This document shows, piece by piece, positions 13,987-59,965 of a stretch of 64,000 bases of DNA. The stretch comes from an uncultured Rhodopila sp. (GTDB lineage: Bacteria; Pseudomonadota; Alphaproteobacteria; Acetobacterales; Acetobacteraceae). Both the position numbers and the translations under genes were made by a program. Under the pieces are notes generated by a model. The model saw only the letters and a program-made list of their open reading frames with translations. It was not told the DNA's origin and did no database searches. Positions within the stretch are counted from its first letter, which is position 1. Each line of letters begins with the position of its first letter. The stretch is from the NCBI GenBank assembly GCA_903851415.1, contig CAINOE010000006.1, positions 1 to 64,000 on the forward strand, given 5' to 3'.

Positions 13987-14041
13987 GTTCAGGCTGCACC
14001 CGGTTCAGCCGCGGTCCGGCAACGTACTTGTATGCCGATGC

Positions 14042-22825: not shown

Positions 22826-22898
22826 GCGTTCACCCGGTGAAGCGATCAGTCTGTGAGCATCCCGGCCAGAGATCCCAACTCCGTTCAAACTCGGGTTT

Positions 22899-28877: not shown

Positions 28878-30692
28878 ATGCCGGGCGGTGAACGAGCCGT
28901 GCCGGTGGCGCAACGGGTCGCGCTGCTTGCATCAGTCGCCTGGGGGGCGAGCACCCTGCCGGCAGCGGCAGCCTTGCTTCCGCCCGCGGAGACGATTGTC
29001 AGCTCGGTGGTGGCTGACAACGATCCGGCGCGCGCCGCGGCGGCGCTGGATGAACACGCCGCGGACGACGGACCATGGCTCAACAGCGTCCGCCTCGGCC
29101 TTAAGTCGCAGGGCCACCCGAAAGACGCACGCGTGCTTCTGGAAGCCCTGGCGCAGCGGCGGCGGTCCGATGCGGTACTATATAATGTGGCGCTGTCCTA
29201 CGTGGATCAGCTTCCCGGCCACAATCTTCTCAACAAGGGGTATCTCTCGACCGCCTCGGTCCGCGCGATCGACGAAATCCTCGAGCGGCACCCGCAGGAC
29301 TGGCTCGCCCTGCATATTCGCGGATTGAACAACCTCTACTGGCCGGACTGGTTCGGCCGGGCGCCGACGGCACGGGTCGACCTCGGCCGCGCCGTCGAGG
29401 CGGGACAGCGATTGCTGTCGGAACGTCCGGATGAGGATGGCCTGGCGTGGACCTATCTGGCACTGGGCGATGCGCTGGCGCTGACCGACCATCCGGCCGA
29501 CGCCAGGACCGCCTGGACGGCGGGCGCGGGCGCCTATCCCTATTTTCCGGCTTTCGCCGCCCGCATCGCCCTCACCGATGCGGAGCAGCACGCAAGCGTC
29601 CGCGCGGAGCGCGACTCCGAGAAGCCGATCGACACGGATCTGGGTCATTTGGCAAACAGTTCGGATCGCGGGCACGCGCTGACGCTGACCGGCGGCACAT
29701 TGTTCGGACCCGGACCGTTGGACGATCAGCCGCTGCCGCACGGCGGACTGATCAATCTGCACCTTGCCAGGCCGTTCACCGGAACGATCCCGCAATTTAA
29801 CAACGGCACCGGCGAGCCGCACATGCCGGGCGAGATCGCCGTCGGAAAGGCCCTGGATGGCAGGTTTTCCGATGGCACGCCGGTGAACAAGAACATCGAC
29901 GTCGGTCACGTCATCCTTATGAACGGCAAGTTCAAGCTGTTCCTGGCGGCCACCGATGGCGGACCCAACCGCGGGGCCGTCCATTTCTACCTCGATCGCT
30001 TCTGGAACTGGACGATCCAGGACGATATCGGGATCGATCCGGGATTCACGCAGGGTGTCATCAAGTTCCAGAACTTCACCTTCTCCACCAGTCCGCGGAT
30101 TCTGCCCGCCTCGACGCAGACTGAGAGCAGGGAGCCAGGCGGCGTCGATCGCGCCGGCAGCCTGCCCAGCGGCACGGTGGTGCCCGGACTGCTGGGCGAT
30201 GACGATGGCGAGGGGAGGCTCGCCGGCACCTTCAACGCCATCGGCAGCTTCCCGTTGGATTCGGTGCTGCTGCCGGGCGCGCCGTTCGCCCAGACCCGTG
30301 TCTTCCGCACCGATATCGTCGTTTCGCCGCAAGTGGCCGGTTTTCTCACCCTGGCCAACGCAGTAAGCTTTCTTCGCGCCGAGGTTGCCCTGGCTTCCGA
30401 CATGGAAGCCGATGAAACCCGGCTCGATCAGACGTTCCGGGATCGGCTTAAATTGGCGATCGGACATTTCGGCAAGGCTGACGCGTGGATTCAGTCCTTG
30501 GACGACAAAGTGCGGCTCGCGTATCAACGGCTGACCGCTCCCCCGGAGGCGTTCGCCAGCCCTTCGGTCCGGATGCATTACATTTGCGAGTCCGCCGCAG
30601 ATCTGTCGGTTGTCGCCTCGGCATTGAACCTTGTGCGGAGCGAGACGGACGGATCGCGGCTGGGCGCACGGCTGAGGTGCGAAGCCCCATGA
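28878..30692 (+). CDS. Exported TPR protein fused to a 'GPG/GSLPSG' family domain (member 1)
   Basis: This 604-residue protein has a signal-like N-terminus (VALLASVAWGASTLPAAAA). Residues about 40-250 are TPR-like (LYNVALSYVDQLPGHNLLNK, AWTYLALGDALALTDHPADA). The same arrangement, with matching words (NYLHWP/NNLYWP, LxNKGYLS/FLSKRAI), occurs in the TPR-DUF1702 protein downstream. From about 265 comes the unrecognised domain: LTLTGGTLFGPGPL, MPGEIAVG, NKNIDVGHV, DGGPNRG, GIDPGFTQGVI, AGSLPSGTVVPGLLGD, VLLPGAPFAQTRVF. A helical tail ends the protein. It is probably periplasmic. It heads the operon and is coupled to the next gene by an ATGA overlap. No enzyme motif was recognised. Confidence 0.75.
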   Translation: MPGGERAVPVAQRVALLASVAWGASTLPAAAALLPPAETIVSSVVADNDPARAAAALDEHAADDGPWLNSVRLGLKSQGHPKDARVLLEALAQRRRSDAVLYNVALSYVDQLPGHNLLNKGYLSTASVRAIDEILERHPQDWLALHIRGLNNLYWPDWFGRAPTARVDLGRAVEAGQRLLSERPDEDGLAWTYLALGDALALTDHPADARTAWTAGAGAYPYFPAFAARIALTDAEQHASVRAERDSEKPIDTDLGHLANSSDRGHALTLTGGTLFGPGPLDDQPLPHGGLINLHLARPFTGTIPQFNNGTGEPHMPGEIAVGKALDGRFSDGTPVNKNIDVGHVILMNGKFKLFLAATDGGPNRGAVHFYLDRFWNWTIQDDIGIDPGFTQGVIKFQNFTFSTSPRILPASTQTESREPGGVDRAGSLPSGTVVPGLLGDDDGEGRLAGTFNAIGSFPLDSVLLPGAPFAQTRVFRTDIVVSPQVAGFLTLANAVSFLRAEVALASDMEADETRLDQTFRDRLKLAIGHFGKADAWIQSLDDKVRLAYQRLTAPPEAFASPSVRMHYICESAADLSVVASALNLVRSETDGSRLGARLRCEAP

Positions 30693-33600
30693 CAACCCGT
30701 TACACAGCGTGCCTGCTCCTTGCGGTGGTTCTGTCGGCCCCTGCGACGGCGCTCGCCGCCGGGGCGGCGGATGTCCGCTTCGAGGACGTCGCGGTCTCAC
30801 CGTCGAGCGGCATTGTGTTCAAGCACGAACGCGCCACGTTCGACCCCAAACTGAAGAAGATCATGCCATGGCTGACGGCGGGCGGCGCCGCCGTTGCCGT
30901 GGGCGATTTCGATAACGACGGCCTTGACGACTTTTACGTTACGACAAGCAAGACCGGCGCCCCCAACAAGCTGTTCCACAACCTGGGCAACTGGCACTTC
31001 AAGGACGTCGCGCCCGAAATGGGCCTGGCGGACGTGAACCGTCCGGAAACCGGCACGTCATCCTTCGCGCTCTGGCTGGACTACGACAACGATGGCTGGC
31101 GGGATCTGCTGCTTGTGCGCTTCGGCAAGCTGTCGTTGTTCCGCAACATCGAGGGCAAGCGGTTCGAGGAGGTCACGGACAAGGCGGGCCTGAATCTGCT
31201 GGTGAACTCCACATCGGCCGCGGCCATCGATTACAACCATAGCGGATACCTCAGCATTCTTATCGGCGGATATTTCCCCGAAAAAGACCTTCACCATATG
31301 CCGGATTCGAAGATCCTTTTCGACTCCTGGGAGACGGCGAAAAACGGCGGCCGGACCTATTTGTTCCGTAACAACGGCAATGGCACGTTCACGGACGTCA
31401 CCAAAGAGGCGGGGCTGTTCGACCGGGGCTGGACCATGGCCATAGGCGTTGGCGATCTTGACAACGACGGTTGGCAGGACATCTATCTCGCCCGCGATTT
31501 CGGCACCGACAAGGTCTACCGGAACCTGCACAACGGCACGTTCGCCGATGTCTCCGAACAGGCCATCGGTGTTGATACCAAAAAAGGTATGAACGCCGAA
31601 ATGGGCGACTACAACAACAGCGGCCGGCTGGGTGTCTATGTGACGAACATGACCGAGCCGTATCTGCATGAATGCAACATGCTGTGGCAGAACAACGGCG
31701 ATTTCCGTTTCACCGACGTGTCGGAGGAGACCGGCACCTGCGATACCGGCTGGGGCTGGGGCGCGAAATTTCTCGACGCCGACAACGACGGGCAGCTGGA
31801 TCTCTACGTAGTCAACGGCTTCATCTCGTCCGGCCCGTCGGACTACATGAAGATCCTGCTGGATTTCATATTCCGGGAGGATGTCGATCTGCGGGACGCC
31901 AAGGACTGGCCGGACATGGGCGGCTACAGCATGGCGGGCTACGAGCACCACGTGCTGTTCCATCAGGAAGGCGGCGCGTTCAAGAACATCGCCGCATCAG
32001 CCGGGGTCGACGATACCCTGGATGGCCGCGGCGTGGCGATCGCCGACTTCGATCATGACGGCAAAATGGACATGATCGTTTCGAATGTCGACGGCCCGGT
32101 CCGGCTTTACCGCAACATCTCCACAAACACCGGCAAATGGATCGGCTTCAACCTGCATGACCGGAAAGGCCGGCCGGAACCCATCGGCGCCAGGGTATAT
32201 GTCACCACCGGGATCGATCAGCAAATGCGGGAGATTTCCCCCGCGAACGGATTCGAGTCGCAAAGCAGCCTGGCGGTCCATTTCGGGATAGGCAATTACA
32301 AGGCGGCCGAGAACGTCGCGATCGTCTGGCCGGACGGGCAACGTCAGGAATTCAGCAACCTCGCCTGCTGCAAGTATTATGACGTCACCCACGAGGGACT
32401 TGCCAAGGCCGCGCAGGCCGCGCCGCCGCCCAAGCCGGAGCATAAGCTGGCTTTCCGGGAGGCTGCGGTGCAATCAGGTGTCGTTGCCCGGCATCATCCC
32501 CCGGTTTTCGACCCGAAGCTGGGCCATATCATGGCGATGGTGTCGGCCGGCGCGGCCGGCGGCGCGATCGGGGAAGTCAATGCGAACGGCCGCGATGACA
32601 TCTTCATCACCGACTCCCGCGCGGGCTATCCCAATCATCTCTTTATCAATCTCGGAAACGGCAAGTTCGAGGACCGTGCGGTTGAAGCCGGTGTGGCGAA
32701 TTTCAATGACGAATATAACGTTTCGACCGGCGGTCTGTTCTTCGACTATGACGGCGATGGGCTGGACGACCTGCTGATCTTCCGCTTCGGCAGCCAGGTC
32801 CTGCTGCACAACCTCGGCAACGGCCGCTTCGAGGATGTCAGTGCGAAGTCGGGCATCGGCGCGATCAAAGGCAACTTTCTCTCCGCGATCGCCTTTGATG
32901 CCGATCGCGACGGTTATCTGGATCTGTATCTGGGCGCGTATTTCCCGGAGGCGGATCTGTTCCACCTGAAGGATGACCACGTTCTGCACGAGAGCTGGGA
33001 GAATGCGCGCAACGGCGGCAGGAAGGTGTTCCTGCACAACAATGGCGATGGAACGTTTACCGACAGAACGGCCGAGGTCGGGCTGCAGGACACCGGATGG
33101 ACGATGGCGCTGGGTTACGCGGACATCGACAACGATGGCTGGCAGGATGTGTACGTCGCCAACGACTACGGTCCGGACATGCTTTTTCATAACGAGCATG
33201 GGCATTTCCGCAATATCACCCCGACGGCGATAGGGTTCGACACGAAAAAGGGAATGAACGCCGAATTCGGCGATTTCGACAATGACGGCTTTCCGGACAT
33301 CTTCGTCACGAACGTCACCGAGCCTTTTCTGCACGAATGCAATATGCTGTGGCACAACAACGGCGACCTGACGTTCACCGACATTGCCTCGGAGATGAAC
33401 GTGTGCGACGGCGGCTGGGGTTGGGGCGGAAAGTTCGCCGATGTCGACAACGATGGTTGGCTCGATATCTACCAGGTCAACGGTTTCTTTACGGGACCGA
33501 AGTCGGCCGACTACCTGACCGTGCTGCTGCCCTCGCTGTGGAATAACGGCGGCGAGGACCCGTCCAGCGCCAGCAAATGGCCGCCGATCAACGGCATGAG

Positions 33601-34096
33601 CATGGTCAACAAGGAGGTTCACCGGCTGTGGATGAACGAAGGCGGCCTGGGTTTTCGCCGCGACGATTCGACGGCACTGGCGAGCACGCTGGATGGCCGG
33701 GGGGTGTTTACGGCGGACCTGAACGACGACGGCCGGATCGACTTCGTAGTAACGAACAACGACGGCCCGGTGCAGGTGTTCTTTAACGAGACCGAGTCGG
33801 GCAACAACTGGATCGAGTTCCGCCTGAAGGGGCGGCCACCGAATACCGATGCCGCGGGCGCGAAGGTTACTATTGAAACGTCTTCCGGAAAGCAGTATCG
33901 GGAGGTGAATATCGGAAACGGCTTCGCTGGCGGCAGCAGCAGGCGGGTCCATTTCGGTCTTGGCACCGCGCAAAAGATCGACGCTATGACCATAAGGTGG
34001 CCCGACGGCTATGAGGAGCGGACAGGTCCCATGGGTGTCAACAAGATTGTCGCGATCAGAGAGCAGGATCAGGTGGCCAGCCATGCGCCGCATTAG
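30689..34096 (+). CDS. Secreted tandem FG-GAP/ASPIC-UnbV (CRTAC-type) protein, two modules
   Basis: This 1,135-residue protein has a signal peptide (TACLLLAVVLSAPATALAAG) and two complete modules, about 25-570 and 590-1,130. Each module is a beta-propeller of FG-GAP/VCBS blades with Ca2+-loop sequences (GDFDNDGLDDFYV, GDLDNDGWQDIYLA, ADIDNDGWQDVYVA) closed by an ASPIC/UnbV domain (FESQSSLAVHFGIGN...VWPDG; GGSSRRVHFGLGT...RWPDG). Both carry a conserved Cys pair (LHECNMLW...TCDTGWGWG; LHECNMLWHNNG...VCDGGWGWGG), probably a disulfide. UnbV proteins are associated with enediyne clusters; their biochemical function is not established. The start at 30689 overlaps the previous stop. An open frame upstream of it is antisense-like and excluded. 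Confidence 0.88.
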   Translation: MTTRYTACLLLAVVLSAPATALAAGAADVRFEDVAVSPSSGIVFKHERATFDPKLKKIMPWLTAGGAAVAVGDFDNDGLDDFYVTTSKTGAPNKLFHNLGNWHFKDVAPEMGLADVNRPETGTSSFALWLDYDNDGWRDLLLVRFGKLSLFRNIEGKRFEEVTDKAGLNLLVNSTSAAAIDYNHSGYLSILIGGYFPEKDLHHMPDSKILFDSWETAKNGGRTYLFRNNGNGTFTDVTKEAGLFDRGWTMAIGVGDLDNDGWQDIYLARDFGTDKVYRNLHNGTFADVSEQAIGVDTKKGMNAEMGDYNNSGRLGVYVTNMTEPYLHECNMLWQNNGDFRFTDVSEETGTCDTGWGWGAKFLDADNDGQLDLYVVNGFISSGPSDYMKILLDFIFREDVDLRDAKDWPDMGGYSMAGYEHHVLFHQEGGAFKNIAASAGVDDTLDGRGVAIADFDHDGKMDMIVSNVDGPVRLYRNISTNTGKWIGFNLHDRKGRPEPIGARVYVTTGIDQQMREISPANGFESQSSLAVHFGIGNYKAAENVAIVWPDGQRQEFSNLACCKYYDVTHEGLAKAAQAAPPPKPEHKLAFREAAVQSGVVARHHPPVFDPKLGHIMAMVSAGAAGGAIGEVNANGRDDIFITDSRAGYPNHLFINLGNGKFEDRAVEAGVANFNDEYNVSTGGLFFDYDGDGLDDLLIFRFGSQVLLHNLGNGRFEDVSAKSGIGAIKGNFLSAIAFDADRDGYLDLYLGAYFPEADLFHLKDDHVLHESWENARNGGRKVFLHNNGDGTFTDRTAEVGLQDTGWTMALGYADIDNDGWQDVYVANDYGPDMLFHNEHGHFRNITPTAIGFDTKKGMNAEFGDFDNDGFPDIFVTNVTEPFLHECNMLWHNNGDLTFTDIASEMNVCDGGWGWGGKFADVDNDGWLDIYQVNGFFTGPKSADYLTVLLPSLWNNGGEDPSSASKWPPINGMSMVNKEVHRLWMNEGGLGFRRDDSTALASTLDGRGVFTADLNDDGRIDFVVTNNDGPVQVFFNETESGNNWIEFRLKGRPPNTDAAGAKVTIETSSGKQYREVNIGNGFAGGSSRRVHFGLGTAQKIDAMTIRWPDGYEERTGPMGVNKIVAIREQDQVASHAPH

Positions 34097-35846
34097 GTTT
34101 GCCGCCTTGGCAATGATCCTCTCATGCGGGGCCGCCGGTGCGCAGCCGCCGGTCAGAACCGCCGCTGAACCGGTGTTCAAGGACGTGACCGGTGCTTCCG
34201 GCCTGCATTTCCGCCACTACGGCCCGGCGGTGAACGAGAAGCTGCGCAATCTCGGTCCGTGGTTTACGGCGCTGGGGGCCGGGGGCGCCACCGGCGACAT
34301 CAATAACGATGGTCTGCTCGATATTTACCTGACAAACAGCCTTTTCGGAAAGCCCAATGCTCTGTTCATCAACAAGGGCGGGATGAACTTTGAGGAGCAC
34401 GCCGCCGACTACGGCGTTGCCGATCTCAATGACGATGACAACTATTCGATGACCGCGTTGCTCGTGGATTTGGACAATGACGGCTACAAGGATCTGGTGG
34501 TCGTCCGGTTCGGTCGCAGTCTGATCTTCCGCAACATCCGTGGCGAGCGGTTCGAGCTTGTGGCCGACGCGCTGGCCAAAGCCCCATCGCCGAGGAATCC
34601 CGTTTCGGTTGTTGCGTTTGACTACGACAGAAGCGGCCTGCTCAGCCTGTACTTCGGGTGCTACTTCCCGGATGTGGACCTGCGGACCGTCAAGACCGGC
34701 AAGGGGCTGCTGCACGACAGTTGGGAAAGCGCCCGTAACGGCGGAACCAACTTCCTTATGAAGAACATGGGCAATTTCAAATTCGAAGACCGCACCATGG
34801 AGGCCGGAGTCGGCGATACCGGCTGGTCTCTGGCGGTGGCATCCGGCGACATCGACAAGGACGGTTGGCCGGACCTTTATGTGGCTAACGACTTCGGCGC
34901 CGACACGGTTTATCATAACAACGGCAACGGAACATTTACCAACATATCGGCCAAGAGTATCGGGATCGACACGAAAAAAGGCATGAACGCCGAATTCGGC
35001 GATTTCGACAACGACGGCCTTCCGGATATATTCGTCACGAACATCACCGAGGCATACCTGCATGAATGCAACATGCTATGGCACAATAATGGCGACCTGA
35101 CCTTCACCGACATGGCGTCGGACCTGGGGGTCTGCGACACCGGTTGGGGCTGGGGAGGGAAATTCCTCGACTACGACAACGACGGCTATCTGGACCTGAT
35201 GGTCATGAACGGCTTCATTTCCGCTGGAAAGAAGGATTACATCGATATTTTGATGCCGATCATGCTGGACGGCGATGTCGATCTGTCGAACACGATGAAC
35301 TGGCCGGCGCTGGGCGATATGAGCTTCAGCGGATACGAACGGAAGAAGCTGTTCCACAATGTCAACGGGCTTTCGTTCGAGGATGTCAGTGCCAAAGCCG
35401 GGGTCGACGTGCAGACCGATGGGCGCGGCCTGATCATCGGGGACTTCGACAACGACGGGCGGGAAGACATGTTGTTCCTGAACGCGAACCAGAACGCGAT
35501 CCTGTTTCAGAACCTGACCCGGGGCGGCAATTGGATCCAGATCGATCTGGAGGGGAAAAAGAGCAACCGTGACGGCATCGGCACCAGGGTCACCGCTTAT
35601 ACCGCGGACGGCAAGTTGTTCTACCGTGAAACCAATGCCGGGAATGGTTTTGAGACTCAAAGTTCCCCACTTGTGCACATCGGTGTTGGCAACCACAAGT
35701 CGATAGATGATCTGGAGGTCATCTGGACGAGCGGGATCGTCCAGCATTTCCACGATGTGCCGGTGAACAGGCGTTTTCATCTCACGGAGAACGCAGATCT
35801 GGTTGAGATGAACCCCGACAAGCGCCAGGCCGGAGCCGCGAAATGA
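34083..35846 (+). CDS. Secreted FG-GAP/ASPIC-UnbV protein, single module
   Basis: This 587-residue protein has a signal peptide (FAALAMILSCGAAGAQ) and one module closely similar to those of the preceding gene: GDINNDGLLDIYLT, VDLDNDGYKDLVVVRFG, SGDIDKDGWPDLYVAND, IDTKKGMNAEFGDFDNDGLP, LHECNMLWHNNGDLTFTDMA, CDTGWGWGGKF. The ASPIC/UnbV end is at about 498-570 (RETNAGNGFETQSSPLVHIG). The DNA of the KGMNAEFGDFDNDG region is nearly identical to that in module 2 upstream, suggesting recent duplication or gene conversion. It overlaps the upstream gene by 14 bases. It is probably a periplasmic or extracellular Ca2+-binding scaffold. Confidence 0.88.
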   Translation: MRRIRFAALAMILSCGAAGAQPPVRTAAEPVFKDVTGASGLHFRHYGPAVNEKLRNLGPWFTALGAGGATGDINNDGLLDIYLTNSLFGKPNALFINKGGMNFEEHAADYGVADLNDDDNYSMTALLVDLDNDGYKDLVVVRFGRSLIFRNIRGERFELVADALAKAPSPRNPVSVVAFDYDRSGLLSLYFGCYFPDVDLRTVKTGKGLLHDSWESARNGGTNFLMKNMGNFKFEDRTMEAGVGDTGWSLAVASGDIDKDGWPDLYVANDFGADTVYHNNGNGTFTNISAKSIGIDTKKGMNAEFGDFDNDGLPDIFVTNITEAYLHECNMLWHNNGDLTFTDMASDLGVCDTGWGWGGKFLDYDNDGYLDLMVMNGFISAGKKDYIDILMPIMLDGDVDLSNTMNWPALGDMSFSGYERKKLFHNVNGLSFEDVSAKAGVDVQTDGRGLIIGDFDNDGREDMLFLNANQNAILFQNLTRGGNWIQIDLEGKKSNRDGIGTRVTAYTADGKLFYRETNAGNGFETQSSPLVHIGVGNHKSIDDLEVIWTSGIVQHFHDVPVNRRFHLTENADLVEMNPDKRQAGAAK

Positions 35847-38800
35847 CAGTTCACGTGACGATGCAATCTTGCCGGCGGCGAATACGCAAGCTGGCCGCGC
35901 CGGCGGTTGCTATCTGCTGCATGTTGACGGGTTCGGCGCTGGCCGACGAACCGCTCAATCCCAAGGACGCGTTGGCCCCGATCTTCAGAGAGAATCCGAA
36001 GCTGGCCGATCCGCAAGCGGACCGAGCGAGGCTGCGTAACGAAGGCATTGCGCACTATGAAGGCGGCCTGACGCTTGACCGGGCGATTGCATCGTTTCAG
36101 GCGGCCTATGACATTGGTCATCAGCCGGTTGACGCCTTCAATATGGCGCTTGTGCTCATCAAGCAGAACAAGCTTGGCGAGGCGCGCGTCTGGACCGAAA
36201 AGGCGCTGGAGGGAAACGCCGGGTTTGCCAACGCCCAATACACCATGGGCTTGATCGAAAAGCTGGACGGACATGCCGATGCCGCGCGGGAGCGTTGGAC
36301 GGCGACCAATAAGCTGCATCCGACGGATGCAAATCTGCATTACGAACTGGCTATGCTGGCGAGCGCCGACAAGGACGAACACAGCTTCCTGCAGGAACTG
36401 TTGCGGGCGTTGGAGCTGGACCCTGACCATAAGTCCAGCCTGTATCAGATGTATCGTTACTACCAAACTACCGGCAACAAGGAGATGGCATCGGCCACGC
36501 TCAAGCATTTCAACGCGGTCAAGTCGGCGGAGCGGTTTTCCCGCAAGGAACGGCCGCTCGACGAAAGCAGCTTTACGAAACCGCTGCGCGACGATCAGCT
36601 TCACGGAACCGGAGGTTTTCCGTTCATCGACTCCGTCATCTCAGCGCAGGTCGTCCGCACACGTCAAACCTGCGCCTTGGTTCGCCTGGCCCGGATGACA
36701 GTCATCGCGTCGCCAGCCAGGGAGAATCTTGTTGGCATCTGCGCTGACGGAACGATACTGCAAATCGCCGATGGCAAGGCCGAGACGCTGGGTAAACTCG
36801 ACGCGCCGGCCGACGACCTTCGGGTTGAGTGGCTGGACCCCCAAGGTCCCCGGGTCATTGCGGCCGGCCCCTCCGGTGTCCGGCTGTCGACGCCGATCGG
36901 CAAGCCGCCGCTTGCGTTTGAAACGATTGACGATACGCCTGCGCGGCGGTTTGTTCTCGCTGATTTTGAGCACGACGGATCGCTCGACATTCTTACGGAT
37001 GCGGCGCCCGCGCCGCTGGCCAAGCACGATGGGAAATACGGCCGCCAGCCGGCGGTTTATGCGAACAGCGCGCTTGCCGGGGTCCTCCAGGGGGACAGCC
37101 CGGTCGGCGTTGCCGATGCGCAACGGCGGGGTATGGCGGATTTGGTCAAGGCGGCGGGCCAGGACGTCCAGTTCGTCGTGGATGGGGCGGCGGGTTACCG
37201 GAACGGGCCGCGTATCCACCTGACAGACCAGGGGACCGTTTCTCAGATCGAAGTGGCGGATCTCGACAATGACGGCGTGCTCGACCTCGTTGCGGCGGCG
37301 AGCGACGGCATTTCCATCGTTTGGGGTTCCGCCAATCCTGATGCCCCCGTCAACATCGCCCGTCTGCCGATCGGCCCCGTCCGCTTCGTCGTTGCCGACA
37401 TGAACAACGACGGCCGGCGCGATATCGTCACCATCGATTCCGGCGGGACCGCCTCCATTCTGGTAAACAGTGGGCCCCGCAAGTTCGACAAGAAGATCCT
37501 GGGTACCGTTCCGGTGCCGGCCGGCGAACTCATCGCGTTTGACGAGAATCGGGACGGCTTGCTCGATATCGCTTATATCGACGGGACCGGCGCGCTGGTC
37601 GTGCTGCGCAACAGCAGCCGGAACGTCGGCGCATCGATTGACGTTTTGCTCAACGGCAAGCGCAGTCCGCCGGCAGGTCAGCTCACGCAGGTGGAGGTGC
37701 GGAAGGGACCGCTCTTTTCCTACGCGCAGTCGGCGGGGGGCCTGGTGCATTTCGGTCTCGGCAAGGAGGAGTATGCCGAAATCGTTCGCCTCGAATGGCC
37801 CAACGGCTTTGTCGAAAACAAGATCAAGGTGGACGCCGCACACGATCCGTACGTGTATCAGGAATCCGAGCGCATCGCCGGCTCCTGCCCGACGGTTTTC
37901 GTGCGGACGGCGGACGGGTTCCACTACGTAACGGACGCTTTGATTACGACCGCTATCGGAATCCTGGAACAACGCGGAGTCTATTTTGGCTTCGGCGATG
38001 AAGAACACGTGGTGATACCCCCCGGCCTTTTAACCGAAGCGGACGGCCGCCTCGACATCAGGGTGACAGAGGAATTGCGGGAAACCACCTATATCGATCA
38101 TGCCGCTCTCCTTGTCCTTGACCATCCGGCCGGGGCGCGCTTGGGCTCGACGGAGCGTCTGGCCCCGCCGGCGCCTGAGAAGGGGCCTTATTATCTCGCC
38201 CGCCATCTCATTCCTGCAGCGCATGCATCCTTCGAGGGGCGGGACGTGACGGAACTGTTGGCGCAACAGGACCGCCGCTATGCCGACACGGTGTTCAGGA
38301 CACGCAATCCGGGCTTCGCCGAACCATCGGTCATCGAATTGACGCTGGCAGACGACGTCGATCCCGGCAGCGTGGATGCAGTCTTTGCAACCGGTTGGTT
38401 CCAGGCATTCGATTCGACCGCGGTGATCGGCGCATTCAAAGGCGAATCTCCTGATTTCCAGTTTCCCGAGCTGCAGGAAAAGGTCGGCGGCGCCTGGTAT
38501 TCGGTTGGCTTCATTGGCATCCCTGCCGGCCAGAACCGAACCGCCGTGCTAACCTTGCAAAAGCCGTTGCGCTCGCGCCAGCTCAGGTTGCTGTCAAACT
38601 TCTCGGTTTATTGGGACGAGATCGCGTTCAGCGTCGCCGGCGAGGCCGTCGCTACCGTTGCGGAGCTGCCGCTTCTGGAAGCGACTCTGAGGTTTCATGG
38701 ATTCTCCGGAATCAAATCGACAGAGCCCGAGACGTTCGATTATGAAAACGTCCGTTACGGGATGATCTGGAGTCCGATGCGCGGTCATTTCACGAACTAT

Positions 38801-42142: not shown

Positions 42143-43239
42143 GGCAGCGATTCCGTGCCACGACCCTGGCGATTATTCTTTGTCTGAGCGGGCCATTGGC
42201 TCGCGCCTATGATCTGACGATAACCGGCGGCACCGTGCATGGTCCCGGCCCGATGCCCGACACGCCGCTTCCCGTAGGGAAGCTGGGTTCAATCGTGTTG
42301 AACAATGAACTTGGAGGCGCGTCGGAGTTTTTCAATAACGGCGCGGAGCCGCCGAATGTTCCGGGCGAGCTGGAGATCTACGGGCATCTCGGCGGCAGGC
42401 TGAGCAACGGCGCACCGTTCAACGAGCACGTCTACGGCGGCGTCGTGTCCATCGGCCAGGGTGCACTTAAGATGCTTTCCGTTATCGCCGGCGACGGCGA
42501 AATGAAAGGCCGGGAGACATACCGCCTCAATGAACGTCTCAATTGGATCATACACACCGATCTGGCGCTTGACGCCGGTTTCCCGCAAGGTTTGGTAATC
42601 AGCCGCAATATTACTATCACCAGCGGCGTTCTGCTGGTGGCGCCGTCGTTGCAGACCGAAGCCGGCCTCAACGGAGGAATGGATGAGGCGGGGTCGCTTC
42701 CGAGCGGCGCTCCCATCTACGGAATGCTCGGCGACATGGACAATCGAGGCTTCCTTGACGGCCGCATCGTCGGGGTCGGCCGGGTGCCGCTGGGCTTCAT
42801 GTTCGTTCCGGGCAGTCCACTCGTTATGCAGCGCGACTTCAAATCGAATATTCCGATCACGCGGGAAGAAGCCGGAATTCTTACCTTCGCCGGTCTGTTA
42901 AATCTCCGCGACATCCTTGCGGTGGCGCGCAATGGAAATCCCGCCGCGCGCTCCTATGTTCTTGCCCACGCCAGGTCCTACTTCGACGACTTCGCTGCAC
43001 GCGCGCGGTCTGCCCAATCCCATCTTTCCGCCGCAGGTCCCGCTCGTTCCGGACAAGCGGCGCAGGCGGCGCAGATTGAGGCGGTCTTGAAACAAGAGAG
43101 CCACGATGCCGACGGTTGGGTAACCGCCGGTGCCATCCCTGAAGCAAGCCTTACAGCTATCGACGTACTTCTACAGCAAATCGACCAGGTCACGCCTGCG
43201 CTTCGTGCCGAACTGCATTTCACCCGAGTCGGAGGATAG
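42139..43239 (+). CDS. Secreted 'GPG/GSLPSG' family protein (member 3)
   Basis: This 366-residue protein has a signal peptide (TTLAIILCLSGPLARAYD). The family core is ITGGTVHGPGPMPDTPLPVG, EPPNVPGELEIYGHLGGRLS, FNEHVYGG, DLALDAGFPQGLVI, PSLQTEAGLNGGMDEAGSLP, YGMLGDMDNRGFLDGRIVGV and MFVPGSPLVMQRDFKSNIPI, then a helical C-terminal tail (LTAIDVLLQQIDQVTPALRA). Its middle part (PGELxxxGxLxGRxSNGxPxNExV) aligns with member 1. It follows member 2 with an ATGA overlap and precedes the cytochrome gene by five bases. It is predicted to be periplasmic. Confidence 0.72.
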   Translation: MRQRFRATTLAIILCLSGPLARAYDLTITGGTVHGPGPMPDTPLPVGKLGSIVLNNELGGASEFFNNGAEPPNVPGELEIYGHLGGRLSNGAPFNEHVYGGVVSIGQGALKMLSVIAGDGEMKGRETYRLNERLNWIIHTDLALDAGFPQGLVISRNITITSGVLLVAPSLQTEAGLNGGMDEAGSLPSGAPIYGMLGDMDNRGFLDGRIVGVGRVPLGFMFVPGSPLVMQRDFKSNIPITREEAGILTFAGLLNLRDILAVARNGNPAARSYVLAHARSYFDDFAARARSAQSHLSAAGPARSGQAAQAAQIEAVLKQESHDADGWVTAGAIPEASLTAIDVLLQQIDQVTPALRAELHFTRVGG

Positions 43240-43244
43240 GACGT

Positions 43245-46121
43245 ATGTTCGGCAGCAGAAGAACGCCTTGGCTTTCAGGGGCTTTCGCGGCAATCCTGCC
43301 CGCACGACAGCGGCGCTGGCATGCTGCCGCCTTCGTGGTGTTGGCGCTGCTTTGCGCCGACACCCTGTTTTTGCTGGCGCATCGCGGCCTGGGTCAGATC
43401 GATGGCTGGATCGGTTGGGGCCGGGTCGCAAGCCGATTCTATCAAGCTACGGTTTTGCTGCACAGTGCGCTTGGCTATCTGTTGACATTGATGCTGCTTG
43501 GCTTCGTCGTCTTCCATGTGCCGGCGGTGCTGCGCCAACTCCGCCGGCGTTGGTTTCTCGCGCTGTCCGGCGTTGTCGTCGCCGGCTCCTTCGGGTTCCT
43601 GCTCTACTCCGGAAACTACTTTCTTCTTCACTCGAAGACCGCCGGCAACGAATGGCTTTATTGGGGCCACATGGCTCTGGCGGTTTTGTTCCTCGTTGTC
43701 TATGCGGGACACCGTCTGTTCGCAGCCGGACGGTTCCCGTTGCGCCCGGTCGGCGTCCTGCTCACCGCGTCTTTCGCGATCGCTCTCTTGATGATCGGCG
43801 GCGAGGTGACGGAGCGCACTCTCAGCATCCAGAAGGTCGCCATCAAGCCATCGCTTACACCTTTTGCCGACGCCTCGGGTTTCGCTCCCGTCAGCGGCAT
43901 AAATCCGGCGGCGCCTTTCTTTCCTTCTCCCGTCTCGATGGCCAGCGGCGCCGCCCGGATAAACACAACGGCGCTGACCGGAACTTATGACGAAGCAATG
44001 GCTGCCCAGGTTCGCGAGGAGGTTGCGCGCAAGGGATTCGCAAATACCCGCCGTATTGGCGCTGAGGACTGCGCGCGCTGTCACGCCGATACGGTCGCCC
44101 AGTGGGAGTCGTCCGCGCACCGCTTTTCGTCATTCAACAACCCGTTCTACGCCGCGGCTTTGGAAGATCTGCGCGCCAGTGACGGGGTACCTAACGACAC
44201 TGTGGCGAAACACCTTGAGACATTTGGCTATAAGAACATCCGCACCGGGCAGCTCAAGTCGCAGTTTTGCGCCGGCTGCCACGATCCGGCGCTTTTGTTT
44301 GAAGGCCGCATGCGAGATGAGATCGACACCGGCGAGATCAGGGCGCAAGCCGGGCTCGCTTGCCTTGCTTGCCATCAGATCAAGGACGTTCCGGGCCACA
44401 CCGGCAATGCAAACTATGTTTGGGATGACGAATTCAAGGACCCTTACCTCTTCAGTGCCAGCAGCGGCCCGTTTGCGACTTTGATACACGACCTGTATCT
44501 GAAGGCGAACCCGGAGCAGCACAAGCGCGACATGCTAAAACCGGTGTTCGGCACAGGAGAGTTTTGCGGAACCTGTCACAAGGTTGCGCTGGAGACGCCG
44601 CTGAACGAATATCACTACGTACGCGGCCAAGATGAATACGACGCCTGGAACAACAGCGGCGTGCCGCTCAACGCGGCCCGGACCTTCTATCAGCCCCCGA
44701 ACGCAAGCAAGTGCCAGACCTGTCACATGCCCGAAGAACCGGCGGTCCTCGGTGACGTTGCGGCGAAGAACGGCAAGATCAAGTCGCATCGCTTCGTCGC
44801 GATCAACACCGCGCTGCCGTTTGTGCGGGGTGATAACGACATGATCGCCCGCACCGAAGCGTTCCTGCGCGACAAGAAGCTGCGCATCGCCTTCGCCGGC
44901 CTTAGGGCCGGGACTCAGATTGGATTGACGACAGAAGATCCGCAGGCATCCTTGACCGTTGGACCCGGCGAATCGCCCGAAATCAATGTGGTGGTCCGCA
45001 ATCTTGGCGTAGGCCATACTTTCCCCGGAGGAACGAACGATTCAAATCAAGGGTGGATCGAAATAACGCTGCAAGATGAAAGCGGCCACCCTCTGCTTCG
45101 CGCAGGCGGGCTGGACGAGCAGGGCAACGTGGCCGAGAACACGCGCATTTACAATGCGGTTTTCATCGACCGTTTCAGCAACCGTGTTGCCAAGCGAAAT
45201 GCCCAGGCTATCGCGGCACTTGTTTATGTGGCGGTGATCCCGCCCAGTTCCTCCGATGTTGTTCGCTTTCGCATACCCGTCGACGCAATTCCGCCGGGGG
45301 TTGGAAAAGTGAAGATTACGGCGAGGCTGCTCTGGCGGAAGTTCAATCGTGACTTCTCAGAGTTCGTTCGAGCGAAGGAGCCGAAGGCGTTCAAGGATCT
45401 CGGTCCGGATTTACCGATTACCGAGATCGTCAAGGCGACTGCCGAGATGTCGATCGATCGCAGCTCGGCCGGATGCACCTTCACGCTGCGACCGGACAAT
45501 GACGTGCCGGTGGCGCAACGCTACACCGTTACGCACGACTATGGCGTGGGCCTGCTTCTGCAGGGCGATACCGTCATCGGCCGTTCCGTCATGGAAGGTC
45601 TGGTGGCCCGCGCGCCCGACTGCGCGACCTGTCTGAGGACGCTGGCCCGGTTGTATCTCGCGGATCGTGACTACCCCGCGGCACGAAAGATTTTGCTCGA
45701 ACATGAAAAACGCTGGCCCGGCGATGCCCAAGCCGCCTGGGTGTGGGCTGGCGTCCTGCGAGGCGAGGGGGCCGACGACGAGGCGGTCGAGGCGCTGGAC
45801 CGCGTGATAGATGTCTATCCGCAGGACAGGGACGCGTGGCGCCTGATGACCGAAATCAGCTACCGGTCCGGACATTTCCAGAAGGCCGCCGACGCGGCCG
45901 GGCAGTTGCTTTCTCTCGATCCCGAGGACGCGACCGCTCATTACTACGCCATGCTTGCCAGGCGCTCGCTGGGCGATGTCGACGGCGCCAGGCGCGAAGA
46001 GTCTGCTTATCGCTGGTATCAGCGCGACGAGAGCGCTCAGCAAATGACACTCGATTTTCGTAAGCGCGATGCTGCGTCGAATTTTGCGTCCCAGCCGATC
46101 AGGGTATACAACCTGCAATGA
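43245..46121 (+). CDS. Membrane b-type/pentahaem c-type cytochrome with C-terminal TPRs
   Basis: In this 958-residue protein, residues 25-195 hold five predicted membrane helices. His73 and His91 lie in one, His142 and His156 in another: the bis-His spacing of a two-haem-b membrane cytochrome. Five CXXCH c-haem sites follow at residues 276 (CARCH), 342 (CAGCH), 373 (CLACH), 441 (CGTCH) and 490 (CQTCH), in a cytochrome c554-like multihaem context. Residues about 560-720 look like a beta domain (VRNLGVGHTFPGGTNDSNQG). The end is TPR (LARLYLADRDYPAARKILLE, WAGVLRGEGADDEAVEALDR). It probably moves electrons from the quinone pool across the inner membrane to a periplasmic acceptor in this operon; the acceptor is unknown. 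It is coupled to the next gene by ATGA. Confidence 0.83.
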   Translation: MFGSRRTPWLSGAFAAILPARQRRWHAAAFVVLALLCADTLFLLAHRGLGQIDGWIGWGRVASRFYQATVLLHSALGYLLTLMLLGFVVFHVPAVLRQLRRRWFLALSGVVVAGSFGFLLYSGNYFLLHSKTAGNEWLYWGHMALAVLFLVVYAGHRLFAAGRFPLRPVGVLLTASFAIALLMIGGEVTERTLSIQKVAIKPSLTPFADASGFAPVSGINPAAPFFPSPVSMASGAARINTTALTGTYDEAMAAQVREEVARKGFANTRRIGAEDCARCHADTVAQWESSAHRFSSFNNPFYAAALEDLRASDGVPNDTVAKHLETFGYKNIRTGQLKSQFCAGCHDPALLFEGRMRDEIDTGEIRAQAGLACLACHQIKDVPGHTGNANYVWDDEFKDPYLFSASSGPFATLIHDLYLKANPEQHKRDMLKPVFGTGEFCGTCHKVALETPLNEYHYVRGQDEYDAWNNSGVPLNAARTFYQPPNASKCQTCHMPEEPAVLGDVAAKNGKIKSHRFVAINTALPFVRGDNDMIARTEAFLRDKKLRIAFAGLRAGTQIGLTTEDPQASLTVGPGESPEINVVVRNLGVGHTFPGGTNDSNQGWIEITLQDESGHPLLRAGGLDEQGNVAENTRIYNAVFIDRFSNRVAKRNAQAIAALVYVAVIPPSSSDVVRFRIPVDAIPPGVGKVKITARLLWRKFNRDFSEFVRAKEPKAFKDLGPDLPITEIVKATAEMSIDRSSAGCTFTLRPDNDVPVAQRYTVTHDYGVGLLLQGDTVIGRSVMEGLVARAPDCATCLRTLARLYLADRDYPAARKILLEHEKRWPGDAQAAWVWAGVLRGEGADDEAVEALDRVIDVYPQDRDAWRLMTEISYRSGHFQKAADAAGQLLSLDPEDATAHYYAMLARRSLGDVDGARREESAYRWYQRDESAQQMTLDFRKRDAASNFASQPIRVYNLQ

Positions 46122-47899
46122 TCAAGACACATACTGCGGCATTTTCGCTTGGCCTGCTGGCGGCAACGGCGCTGCTGGCCTCCTGCAAGGAGAAGAAGCA
46201 AGCGGCGATCCCGAAAAAAGCCGACTACGCCGTAACGGCGCCCAAGCAGGAAACTGCGGTTAACGTTCCGGTTCCGGTGTTCAAGGACATTACGCAGGAG
46301 GCGGGAATAACGTTCGCCGGCGTCACCGGCGCGGACGGCCGCAAACTTATGCCCGAGACGATGGGCTCGGGTGTGGGGCTGATCGACTACGACGGCGACG
46401 GCTGGCTTGACCTTGTTCTTGTCAACGGCCGCCCCTGGGACGCAACCAAGAAATGTCCGCCGTTGCTCACGGTCTACCACAACGAAAGGAACGGAAAGTT
46501 TCGGGACGTGACCTCCGAGCTTGGTCTCGAGAATCTTTGCGGCTATGGCATGGGGGTCGCGATCGCCGATTACGACGGCGACGGCCGTCCGGACATTTTC
46601 GTAACGTCCTTGGACGGCAATCACCTTCTGCACAATGACGGCAAGAGCTTCACCGACGTGACCGAACGTGCGGGGCTAAATCCGCCTAAGGATCTCGCGC
46701 AGAGATGGAGCACCTCGGCTGCGTGGCTCGATGCCACCGGCGACGGACGTCCCGACCTGTTCATAGCCAACTATGTGCGATGGACGCCGGAAACGGACGT
46801 ATTCACCACGCGCGACGGCACCACCAAGTCCTATGCCACTCCCACGGTTTATAAGGGGGTTTCAAATCGGCTGTTCCGGAACCGTGGCGATGGAACGTTC
46901 GAGGACGTGACTGTACAGTCGGGAATCTACGACGATCACAACAAGGCGCTCGGAGTCGTCGTTCTCGACATCAGCGGTGATCGACATCCGGACCTTTTCG
47001 TATCCAACGACACTCAACCCAATAAGCTTTATGTCAATGACGGACACGGCCATTTTGTGGACCGCGCCCTCGAATACGGTGTCGGTTACGACGAAATGGG
47101 ACGGGCGAAGGCCGGGATGGGCACCGATGCGGCCGATATCGGGGGCGGCGTTCTGGCAATCGGCGTGGGCAACTTCAGCGATGAGGCCGTTTCGCACTTC
47201 GAACTGCCGCCGGCCGGCGCGAATGCCTTCACCGATGGAAGCCCGAGACGGGGACTTGCAAGCGCGACGCTCGCCGATCTGACGTTCGGCACGCGATTTG
47301 CGGACCTGAATAACGATGGACGCCCCGACCTTATCCTTATCAACGGGCATATCGAGCCCGACATCGCAAGAGTGCAGGCGGGAACGACATATGCGCAATT
47401 GCCGCGGTTGTTTCTGCAGGATGCGTCGGGCCGTTACCAGGAATATTCCAGGCTCGCGGGAAAGCCGTTGATGCAACCGGTCGTCGGACGCTCCCTCGCG
47501 ATCGGCGATGTCTTCAATGACGGCAACCTGGACTTGCTGATCAGCACCAACGGCGGCCCGGCGCATCTGTTGCGCAATGTCAGCCCGCCGCGTGGCTTTG
47601 TCGAGCTGACGCTGGTGGGAAAGGGCGGCAACCGGGACGCCCTGGGTGCATCGGTCGTCGTGGAAGCCGATACCGGTTGGCGCTGGACCGACACCGTCCG
47701 GAGCCGCGGGTCCTATTTAGCCAGCAGCCCCTACACGTTGCACACCGGCGTCCCTGACGGCGTCGCCAAGGTCGCGCTGCACGTCGTCTGGCCGGACGGA
47801 AGCAAGAGCGATGAGCAGGAGGTCGCGGTTGGCCATTGCTACCGCCTGACACAGGACGGTGTCCTGACCTCAGTTGAATTTCCAAAGGTCGGAGGCTGA
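46118..47899 (+). CDS. CRTAC-type FG-GAP/ASPIC-UnbV lipoprotein
   Basis: This 593-residue lipoprotein has the signal SLGLLAATALLASCKEKKQ (lipobox LASC). The classical CRTAC1/ASPIC-UnbV architecture follows: FKDITQEAGITFAGVTGADG, GLIDYDGDGWLDLVLVNG, AIADYDGDGRPDIFVTSLDG, LDISGDRHPDLFVSNDT, ADLNNDGRPDLILINGHIEP. The UnbV end is at about 505-590 (DALGASVVVEADTGWRW, SSPYTLHTGVPDGV, VVWPDGSKSDEQEV). It differs from the modules at 30.7-35.8 kb: it lacks their LHECNMLW/GWGWG cysteine block and resembles the widespread CRTAC type. It pairs with a multihaem cytochrome immediately upstream. It is probably membrane-tethered in the periplasm. Confidence 0.88.
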   Translation: MIKTHTAAFSLGLLAATALLASCKEKKQAAIPKKADYAVTAPKQETAVNVPVPVFKDITQEAGITFAGVTGADGRKLMPETMGSGVGLIDYDGDGWLDLVLVNGRPWDATKKCPPLLTVYHNERNGKFRDVTSELGLENLCGYGMGVAIADYDGDGRPDIFVTSLDGNHLLHNDGKSFTDVTERAGLNPPKDLAQRWSTSAAWLDATGDGRPDLFIANYVRWTPETDVFTTRDGTTKSYATPTVYKGVSNRLFRNRGDGTFEDVTVQSGIYDDHNKALGVVVLDISGDRHPDLFVSNDTQPNKLYVNDGHGHFVDRALEYGVGYDEMGRAKAGMGTDAADIGGGVLAIGVGNFSDEAVSHFELPPAGANAFTDGSPRRGLASATLADLTFGTRFADLNNDGRPDLILINGHIEPDIARVQAGTTYAQLPRLFLQDASGRYQEYSRLAGKPLMQPVVGRSLAIGDVFNDGNLDLLISTNGGPAHLLRNVSPPRGFVELTLVGKGGNRDALGASVVVEADTGWRWTDTVRSRGSYLASSPYTLHTGVPDGVAKVALHVVWPDGSKSDEQEVAVGHCYRLTQDGVLTSVEFPKVGG

Positions 47900-47906
47900 G
47901 GCTGCC

Positions 47907-48779
47907 ATGCGGGATCGTTCGTTACGCCACCGCCGGGCCGGCCTCGGCATCGTCGCATTCGCCGCCGCCTGTGCCTTGGCCGGGGCGGCGGCATCGGCTT
48001 TCACGGTTTACAGCAACCACGCATCCTACATGAAATCGGGCACTTTCTTCGGCCCCGGAAAGCTGCCGGACTCTACGATTTTCGACATAACAATCCGGAA
48101 CGTTGTTTTTCTCAGCGATGGCACGTTCGTTACGCCTTTCGTGAACGGCGGCACGGACGGTCCCCACACAGCCGGAGAGATCGCGACCGAATCCGCTCCC
48201 AACGGAATGTTTTCCGATGGCGTCACGATGATCAACGAAAACGCCGATGCCGGCCCGTTTTCGCTCAACGGAACGACCTTTCTGGCCGGCATTTCCGACG
48301 GCGGCCCGCACCATGGCGAGCAGCTTGCGCTGATGCACGACGGCACGATGATCATGACCATGGATCTGGTTCTCGACATGGGAATTGGCGGGGCGGGCAT
48401 CGTGAAGATGCCGTTTTATGGAACGACGGGGGAGGTGGTCGTGCCTTTATCGTTACAGACGCAGATGGGTTTGCCCGGGGGTATCGATCGCGCGGGATCG
48501 CTTCCTTCCGGCACGAAACTCAGCGGCCGCCTGGGCGACTTCAACCACGACGGATTTCTCGACGGTGCCATCGTCGTTGCCGGAAACCTGCCGCTGACCT
48601 CGATCTTCATGCCGGGCGCCCCGTACGCCCTGATTCGCTACTTCGAAACGGATATGCCCGTTGGCGGCCAGCGCGTTGGCCGCCTGCCGGGGGCGCAGGC
48701 CGACCGTGAGGCCGCGCGGGCAAAGGCGGATTTGCGCTTTCCCGAGGACAGCGCGCGGTTTGAGGCCGCGGCGCGATGA
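47907..48779 (+). CDS. Secreted 'GPG/GSLPSG' family protein (member 4)
   Basis: This 290-residue protein has a signal peptide (GIVAFAAACALAGAAASAFT). The mature part has YMKSGTFFGPGKLPDSTIFD, HTAGEIATES, GMFSDGVTMINENADAG, SDGGPHHGEQL, VLDMGIGGAGIVKMPFYGTT, PLSLQTQMGLPGGIDRAGSL, GRLGDFNHDGFLDGAIVVAG and MPGAPYALIRYFETDMPVGG. It is shorter than members 2 and 3 because the helical tail is reduced to a charged end. The ATG at 47907 follows GGAGGCTGAGG; the frame extends 11 codons upstream into the previous gene. It is coupled to member 5 by ATGA. Confidence 0.72.
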   Translation: MRDRSLRHRRAGLGIVAFAAACALAGAAASAFTVYSNHASYMKSGTFFGPGKLPDSTIFDITIRNVVFLSDGTFVTPFVNGGTDGPHTAGEIATESAPNGMFSDGVTMINENADAGPFSLNGTTFLAGISDGGPHHGEQLALMHDGTMIMTMDLVLDMGIGGAGIVKMPFYGTTGEVVVPLSLQTQMGLPGGIDRAGSLPSGTKLSGRLGDFNHDGFLDGAIVVAGNLPLTSIFMPGAPYALIRYFETDMPVGGQRVGRLPGAQADREAARAKADLRFPEDSARFEAAAR

Positions 48780-49615
48780 GGTGCAGCTTGTATTCGATGC
48801 GCACGTTCCGTGGTCCGATCATTCGCCTGCGCATGATGATCGCGGCCGGTCTTATCGGGCTTGCATCAACCGTACCGGCGCACGCCTTTACTCTCTGGAG
48901 CGATGAGCGAACGACGCCGGGAGGTGCCGGGTTGTTTTTCGGTCCGGGAAGCTGGACGCAGGTGTCTCCGCTTTTTCCGGTGGTCATCCGCGGCATGGGC
49001 TTCGTCAGTGACGTAGATTTCGCGACACCTTTCTTCAATAACAATGGACAGGGGCCTGCCACCATCGGCGAGAAGGAGCTTGGTCTGAAGGACGGCAGGA
49101 CTTCCGACGGCTCGTTGATCAACGAGAATGTTGATACCGGAACGTTCACCGTTGCCGGAACCCGCATGCTGCCGGTGGTTGCCCGGTCGGACGGAAAATT
49201 TGGCGGCAGCCAGGCGGCCGTGTCATTGCGGGGCGGCGACGTCGTCATGGCGATGGACCTGACGATCGATCTTGGCATCGGTCCCAGGGGGATCATCAAG
49301 ATCCCGTTCTATGGCACGACCGGAACGGTGACCGTGCCGCCCTCGCTACAAACCCAGAGCGGCGGAAAAGGTGTCGACCAGGCCGGAAAGCTGGCATCGG
49401 GTACGACCATCGCCGGCCGGGTAGGCGATTTCAACCACGACGGCTACATCGACGGCACGCTCGTTGCAGTTGGTGTAATGCCGATGACATCGCCCATCTA
49501 TCCCGGTCAGCCCTTCGCAATGGTGCGAAACTTCGCAACGGATATCCCGGTGGCCGGCGTCGTGGTCGGTGCGTACAAGCCGGGAGCCGAACCGTCTGTG
49601 CGTTCGGGACGATAG
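48776..49615 (+). CDS. Secreted 'GPG/GSLPSG' family protein (member 5)
   Basis: This 279-residue protein has a signal peptide (MMIAAGLIGLASTVPAHAFT). It is closest to member 4: GGAGLFFGPGSWTQVSPLFP, DGSLINENVDTGTFTVAGTR, LTIDLGIGPRGIIKIPFYGT, PPSLQTQSGGKGVDQAGKLA, GRVGDFNHDGYIDGTLVAVG, YPGQPFAMVRNFATDIPVAG. The GSLPSG word has become GKLASG. Members 4 and 5 look like a local duplication. It is the last of the eleven coupled genes; 11 bases separate it from the DUF2461 gene. Confidence 0.7.
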   Translation: MRCSLYSMRTFRGPIIRLRMMIAAGLIGLASTVPAHAFTLWSDERTTPGGAGLFFGPGSWTQVSPLFPVVIRGMGFVSDVDFATPFFNNNGQGPATIGEKELGLKDGRTSDGSLINENVDTGTFTVAGTRMLPVVARSDGKFGGSQAAVSLRGGDVVMAMDLTIDLGIGPRGIIKIPFYGTTGTVTVPPSLQTQSGGKGVDQAGKLASGTTIAGRVGDFNHDGYIDGTLVAVGVMPMTSPIYPGQPFAMVRNFATDIPVAGVVVGAYKPGAEPSVRSGR

Positions 49616-59906: not shown

Positions 59907-59950
59907 GCTTTCCTCTGGACCGCCAACATCCGGCTCAGACGATATAGGCA

Positions 59951-59965
59951 ACGCGAAACAGTTTC
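59951..59965. promoter_or_regulatory. Small palindrome in the PKS/RND divergent region
   Basis: GCGAAACAGTTTCAC contains the inverted GAAAC-A-GTTTC. It lies 45-59 bases upstream of the PKS start, in the 161-base region shared with the divergent efflux genes. It could be an operator or chance; no regulator gene is present in the window. Confidence 0.35.

What the first reader, a model, noticed from the sequence alone, without database searches (positions are those of the whole stretch)
28878..49615. Eleven-gene, translationally coupled envelope operon of UnbV, DUF1702, multihaem cytochrome and an unrecognised secreted family
Seen: 20.7 kb of one-direction genes. Most junctions are overlaps (ATGA at 30689, 35843, 41060, 42139, 46118 and 48776; longer overlaps at 34083 and 39126), and almost every product has a signal peptide, lipobox or anchor. 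Known: UnbV and DUF1702 proteins accompany PKSE genes in enediyne clusters with unassigned roles. Inference: the products may form one stoichiometric periplasmic assembly that acts on, binds or protects against the neighbouring polyketide. I know of no described system with this composition.
Basis: partly seen in the sequence, partly recalled or inferred. Interest (0 to 1): 0.93.

Follow-up and report, generated by a model that had tools for sequence, protein, structure and literature searches.

The report
Haem-bearing relative of the enediyne cassette
This is a rare block of bacterial genes, most of them for predicted exported proteins, that includes relatives of the enediyne-antibiotic helper proteins E3 and E4 and lies next to the same kind of polyketide synthase; a membrane haem protein is predicted to carry off electrons while the others likely oxidise the synthase's product, possibly into carbon-carbon triple bonds.

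Summary
In detail: eleven + strand genes (28878-49615), most with export signals, eight or nine of ten junctions overlapping. g1 (C-terminus), g6, g7, g10 and g11 share one family without a Pfam or NCBIfam model. g2, g3 and g9 are UnbV proteins (enediyne E4 type), g4 is a borderline one, and g5 ends in DUF1702 (E3 type). The opposite-strand PKS downstream is PKSE-type, with two fused E10-like thioesterase stretches. No NQR2/RnfD-like protein (E5 type) was found among g1-g13; g8, a membrane protein with five CxxCH motifs, is the evident membrane redox protein. The gene order recurs in Burkholderiales, Methylococcaceae, Chromatiaceae and Thiosymbion genomes. In three of these four a PKSE lies directly upstream on the same strand; in the fourth, contig ends hide it. 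None of 32 congeners has the block's UnbV or DUF1702. The window's PKSE is of another lineage than those of the relatives, which weakens the local pairing. Best explanation: an exported, haem-coupled relative of the enediyne cassette that oxidises a PKSE polyene. The chemistry is inferred, no product is known. New variant of a known kind.

The parts
28878..30692 (+). g1: TPR module shared with g5, then a domain of the unnamed secreted ('GPG') family
30689..34096 (+). g2: double FG-GAP/UnbV protein (E4 type)
   Evidence: PF07593 134.5 bits, 2 stretches
34083..35846 (+). g3: FG-GAP/UnbV protein (E4 type)
   Evidence: PF07593 67.3 bits; 25-28% identity to classical E4
35843..39133 (+). g4: TPR-like, FG-GAP and borderline UnbV, plus an unassigned C-terminal part
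   Evidence: PF07593 20.4 bits (cut-off 23.4), 24.0 bits
39126..41063 (+). g5: N-terminal anchor, TPR module, DUF1702 (E3 type)
   Evidence: PF08012 60.7 bits; profile match to classical E3, E 2.7e-15; anchor
41060..42142 (+). g6: GPG family; predicted beta domain (27-231) and helix bundle (232-360)
   Evidence: model with pLDDT 94
42139..43239 (+). g7: GPG family
43245..46121 (+). g8: five hydrophobic stretches, five CxxCH motifs, TPRs
   Evidence: five CxxCH in the 3 full-length proteins compared, membrane-region histidines kept in 4 of 4 sequences
46118..47899 (+). g9: UnbV protein with a lipobox
   Evidence: PF07593 37.4 bits, LASC
47907..48779 (+). g10: GPG family without the helix bundle (TTG at 47874 is the other possible start)
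48776..49615 (+). g11: GPG family without the helix bundle
49627..50289 (+). g12: DUF2461
   Evidence: PF09365 104.3 bits; follows g11 in G059, G062 and G558
50333..51226 (+). g13: alpha/beta hydrolase near haloalkane dehalogenases; not found in the relatives' loci
   Evidence: no hit
51227..52714 (-). amidase-like gene by eye (not scanned); its stop abuts that of g13
52704..59951 (-). PKSE-type synthase: KS-AT-ACP-KR-DH-PPTase-like region, then two thioesterase-like stretches

Best explanation
The block is built on relatives of the enediyne cassette proteins E3 (DUF1702) and E4 (UnbV), here predicted to be exported or anchored, which would oxidise a polyene made by a PKSE, likely to alkynes, while the membrane haem protein g8 is predicted to take the electrons, a task I would assign to E5 in the classical cassette. 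Shown: E3-, E4-, PKSE- and E10-type parts are present; no NQR2/RnfD-like protein was found among g1-g13; g8 has five CxxCH motifs and conserved histidines in its membrane region; in three relatives the block sits directly behind a PKSE. Inferred: the PKSE with its thioesterase stretches releases a linear conjugated polyene; it reaches the periplasm; UnbV and DUF1702 proteins dehydrogenate it; the secreted GPG proteins hold the greasy intermediate or product; TPR modules hold the parts together. Which protein is catalytic is unknown.
For: Fused stretches best match the enediyne thioesterases 4i4j, CalE7 and DynE7. KS in one 39-row group (100/100) with classical-type PKSEs, catalytic motifs kept. 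g5 matches the classical E3 profile, g2 and g3 match classical E4 at 25-29% identity. Classical cassettes read here have an NQR2/RnfD-like E5 (3 of 5 scanned over cut-off); this block has none but has g8. PKSE directly upstream in 3 of 4 relatives. PKSE-type synthase in 10 of 12 genomes with DUF1702 over cut-off in two orders.
Against: The window's PKSE is of lineage A, those of the relatives of lineage B, and it lies on the other strand; no trace of a lineage-B PKSE upstream of g1. g8 and E5 are not alike in sequence, so the swap is analogy. Fold searches show no catalytic site. G065 has a PKSE-group synthase without DUF1702, and G558 a decayed block without a PKSE-type hit. No product is known.
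Confidence: 0.48

Rival explanations
1. Self-protection and export: secreted GPG and UnbV proteins bind a reactive PKSE product in the periplasm, the haem protein quenches radicals, and the neighbouring RND pump expels it.
For: Many binding-type exported proteins; an RND gene at 61150-63999; g6 is predicted with a confident beta domain that could hold a ligand.
Against: Two parts are relatives of E3 and E4, which belong to the core set common to the enediyne clusters compared in PMC5181780 (passages), not to the resistance genes. No RND-type gene lies inside the block in the relatives.
Confidence: 0.2
2. An envelope pigment or lipid system: the PKSE polyene is set into the membrane as a protective or redox-active lipid, and the block delivers and tunes it without making alkynes.
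For: The cluster region shows none of the tailoring genes I would expect (recalled) for a finished enediyne; the thioesterase stretches suit release of a free polyene.
Against: E3- and E4-type proteins are conserved with enediyne PKSEs; why a lipid carrier would need several UnbV proteins is unclear.
Confidence: 0.17
3. In the window the PKSE is only a neighbour: the block has lost its own PKSE and the lineage-A gene next door is unrelated to it.
For: Other lineage and strand; no remnant upstream of g1; a PKSE-less, decayed copy exists in G558.
Against: All window genes are intact; the two units abut, stops at 51226 and 51227; no other PKSE-like match in the genome comes near (next best 212 bits).
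Confidence: 0.15

Closest known systems
Enediyne PKS cassette E3/E4/E5/E/E10 (PMC5181780, passages); read here in six Methylococcales-order genomes
   Same: DUF1702 (E3), UnbV (E4), a PKSE-type synthase and E10-like thioesterase sequence
   Different: Thioesterase fused to the PKSE; E3 domain joined to TPRs and an export anchor; several UnbV genes; no NQR2/RnfD-like E5 found; a haem protein and five GPG-family members added; GPG family found in none of the six classical genomes
Putative enediyne cluster of the methanotroph Methyloprofundus INp10 (PMC8788690, passages)
   Same: A Gram-negative host with homologues of E3, E4, E5, E and E10
   Different: Described there as the five-gene set; the passages mention no haem protein or extra secreted family
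Multihaem c-type cytochromes of the MtrC/OmcA and ExtKL kinds
   Same: A run of CxxCH motifs in g8 (PF22113, 38.7 bits)
   Different: Five motifs joined to membrane stretches and TPRs; NCBIfam matches far below their cut-offs

Membership tests
Enediyne PKS cassette | PKSE with KS-AT-ACP-KR-DH-PPTase | tested here: met
   KS, AT, KR, DH by Pfam; ACP and PPTase only by aligned motifs, no Pfam match for either; KS tree group. Which tree rows make enediynes is by source name or recall, not tested
Enediyne PKS cassette | E3, DUF1702 protein | tested here: met
   as the C-terminal half of g5
Enediyne PKS cassette | E4, UnbV protein | tested here: met
   g2, g3, g9 over cut-off
Enediyne PKS cassette | E5, NQR2/RnfD-like membrane protein | tested here: not met
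   no PF03116 match in g1-g13; the rest of the genome was not searched for it; two of five classical E5 also fall below the cut-off
Enediyne PKS cassette | free-standing E10 thioesterase | tested here: not met
   E10-like sequence is fused to the PKSE; no separate one seen among the genes of the block
Enediyne PKS cassette | PKSE and helper genes clustered | tested here: met
   same strand, directly upstream in G059, G060, G061; in the window adjacent but convergent
Enediyne PKS cassette | makes an enediyne | not testable with these tools
   no product data
Multihaem c-type cytochrome (g8) | several CxxCH motifs in an exported or membrane protein | tested here: met
   five motifs, five in each of 3 full-length proteins; haem itself not tested
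OmcA/MtrC decahaem cytochromes (g8) | ten haem motifs | tested here: not met
   five CxxCH; TIGR03507 22.1 bits against a cut-off of 209.3

The most novel reading that the evidence does not exclude
Alkyne formation moved to the envelope and plugged into respiration: a PKSE polyene leaves the cytoplasm, E3/E4-type proteins with the secreted GPG proteins turn it into a polyyne in the periplasm, and a membrane cytochrome b/c hands the electrons to the quinone or cytochrome pool. By analogy, classical E5 would be the electron outlet of the enediyne cassette.
Probability: 0.28. Interest if true: 0.9.

Novelty: new variant of a known kind. Interest (0 to 1): 0.73.

Why it matters
A 2024 paper still calls the exact roles of E3, E4 and E5 uncertain (PMC11069151, passages). 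A natural variant that keeps E3-, E4-, PKSE- and E10-type parts but has a haem protein in a block without E5 makes a direct prediction: E5 and g8 do the same redox job. It also offers exported, anchored relatives of E3 and E4 to work with, and the GPG family as a marker for finding such clusters in uncultured Gram-negative bacteria.

Full report
Observation. The eleven genes are real and placed as described. Pfam gives FG-GAP and UnbV for g2 (two UnbV stretches), g3 and g9, a borderline UnbV match for g4, DUF1702 for g5 (60.7 bits, cut-off 25) and an MtrC/MtrF-like domain for g8. g1, g6, g7 and g11 have no Pfam or NCBIfam match, and g10 only a 17-bit NCBIfam match against a cut-off of 100. They align with one another, and one profile finds five places in the genome, all in this block. 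I call this the GPG family after its GPGP motif, seen in 65 of 87 rows; 79 of 87 rows carry GD-x-(D/N)-xx-G-xx-DG, which resembles the loops of FG-GAP repeats (a calcium role is inference).

The synthase. The - strand gene at 52704-59951 has KS, AT, KR and DH domains by Pfam. Catalytic motifs of these and of the ACP are kept, and a PPTase-like region aligns with that of classical PKSEs. Its last 428 residues match, in two separate stretches, the enediyne thioesterases 4i4j, CalE7 and DynE7 best among PDB entries. A search with residues 1280-2415 gave 377 hits; among the 120 listed many are named 'enediyne polyketide synthase' by JGI. In a KS tree of 48 chosen rows it falls in one group of 39 (100/100) that also holds actinobacterial rows such as Salinispora and Micromonospora; that these are enediyne synthases is by source name or recall. 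The group has three parts: A (16 rows, the window's gene), B (8 rows, the synthases of G059-G062, G065 and three others) and C (15 rows, classical type). B and C are sisters (99/98).

The classical cassette as yardstick. DUF1702 was sought in 301 genomes of the order of G060: 8 have it. Six of the eight have a near full-length match to a Salinispora PKSE (E=0). In the loci read from them a free DUF1702 protein, an UnbV protein, an NQR2/RnfD-like protein and a PKSE of about 1940 aa stand in a row, with a free E10-like gene seen in three genomes. PF03116 is over its cut-off in 3 of the 5 E5 proteins scanned. I take this order, E3/E4/E5/E/E10 as named in PMC5181780 (passages), to mean E3=DUF1702, E4=UnbV, E5=NQR2/RnfD-like; JGI names one relative of g5 'enediyne biosynthesis protein E3'. 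The profiles of g5 and classical E3 match over 283 columns (98.5%, E 2.7e-15). Of the eight genomes only G060 has the GPG family.

Distribution and linkage. The one scan of the species-genome collection with a g6 profile, by two short exact patterns and so an undercount, gave 4 loci: Burkholderiales (G059), Methylococcaceae (G060), Chromatiaceae (G061) and a Thiosymbion symbiont (G062). Gene order is the window's where contigs allow. Best-stretch identity to G059 is 58-73%. G060, G061 and G062 read g2 and g3 as one frame. G062 has an extra 364-aa frame between g4 and g5, and g7-g10 were not found on the contigs read. A PKSE lies directly upstream of g1 on the same strand in G060 and G061 and, by its thioesterase end, in G059. 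In G062 it is on another contig that ends 82 nt past its stop. Among metagenome protein clusters, 33 of 114 TPR-DUF1702 clusters share an exact longest-contig length with one of 119 GPG clusters; 102 shifted controls gave a mean of 0.38 and a maximum of 2. The same comparison gave one TPR-DUF1702 match and no GPG match to the 120 listed PKS rows, as typed.

Co-occurrence. In the orders of G060 and G061, 12 of 511 genomes have DUF1702 over cut-off (8 of 301; 4 of 210). Ten of the 12 have a PKSE-type synthase; three of the ten (G060, G061, G062) are the seeds that led to these orders, so 7 of 9 without them. In G374 the synthase is a fragment on a short contig. The misses are G351, whose DUF1702 match is a 97-aa frame, and G558, a decayed copy of the block. 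A fifth genome of the second order, G422, matches below the cut-off and has no such synthase. Of 32 genomes without DUF1702 used as controls (27 from the two orders, 5 congeners), 6 have some PKS match at E<=1e-40 and one, G065, at E<=1e-100. G065's synthase falls in lineage B, so a synthase of this group can do without E3.

Host and island. The assembly is an unnamed draft. None of 32 congeners has DUF1702 or UnbV; four genomes of other families in the class have UnbV. The left flank is at home in the genus, and similarity to the three congeners read ends at 26199-26236. G+C is 0.608 over g1-g13, 0.649 to the left and 0.648 to the right. A horizontal acquisition is likely; its right edge was not found.

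Mechanism. PKSE with a thioesterase gives a linear conjugated heptaene in E. coli (as cited in PMC8725005, passages). The exact roles of TnmE3/E4/E5 were called uncertain in 2024 (PMC11069151, passages). I recall, from a paper not held, that the five-gene cassette makes iodinated polyene and polyyne products, which would call for oxidation by E3-E5. In the present block E5 is missing and g8 is the evident membrane redox protein: five hydrophobic stretches in residues 27-184, His 26, 73, 91, 142 and 156 kept in 4 of 4 sequences, one of them partial, and five CxxCH motifs in 3 of 3 full-length ones. Haem b in the membrane part is inference. The economical reading is that g8 does E5's task; the two are not alike in sequence, so this is analogy. 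E3 is here likely exported: 63 of 73 relatives of g5 have a hydrophobic N-terminus and 36 a lipobox-like motif, while four classical E3 proteins stay below that hydropathy threshold; of five classical E4 frames three pass it and two do not, perhaps because their starts are set too far upstream. The oxidation would then lie outside the cytoplasmic membrane.

What speaks against. The window's PKSE is of another lineage than the block's usual partner, on the opposite strand, and nothing of the usual partner remains upstream. Either one PKSE replaced another, which fits a shared chemistry, or the neighbour is incidental. The models point to no catalytic site. No product is known.

Verdict. It is not filed as a classical enediyne cassette (E5 and free E10 not met), but it is built on E3-, E4- and PKSE-type parts and adds export signals, a secreted family and a haem protein: a new variant of a known kind.

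Noticed in passing
window 12439-15532 and 17085-19721: Two type VI secretion sheath genes side by side and a ClpB/ClpV-like AAA gene; a second copy at 80-81% DNA identity lies on G000:C147.
   Followed up: no
window 20903-24977: Two serine/threonine kinase genes in a row, one with a C-terminal PDZ domain, next to the secretion genes.
   Followed up: no
window 50333-51226 (g13): Alpha/beta hydrolase close to haloalkane dehalogenases (best PDB match 8ooh, 246 bits; named dehalogenases up to 117 bits). With iodinated intermediates reported for enediynes, a dehalogenase here is suggestive, but it was not found in the relatives' loci.
   Followed up: partly
L070 (G558:C338): A decayed copy of the block: g4, g5, g8, g9, g10, g11 broken or shortened in the same order, g12 intact, no PKSE-type hit in the genome.
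   Followed up: partly
L036-L042: Classical enediyne-type cassettes in six of 301 genomes of the order of G060, in part with a MMPL transporter nearby (L036).
   Followed up: partly
L071 (G065): A 2928-aa synthase of lineage B in a genome without DUF1702 or a match to the block beside it.
   Followed up: no
L004, L022, L073: g2 and g3 are read as one frame in G061, G060 and G062, so three UnbV units sit in one protein.
   Followed up: no
L018 and L021, upstream of the PKSE: A 232-239-aa gene without a Pfam match, and a sigma-54 activator gene further upstream, are shared by G061 and G060 at 40-41% identity: possible regulators.
   Followed up: partly
window 27918-28637, - strand: A DUF3102 gene in the otherwise gene-poor stretch between the end of genus-wide similarity and g1.
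   Followed up: no
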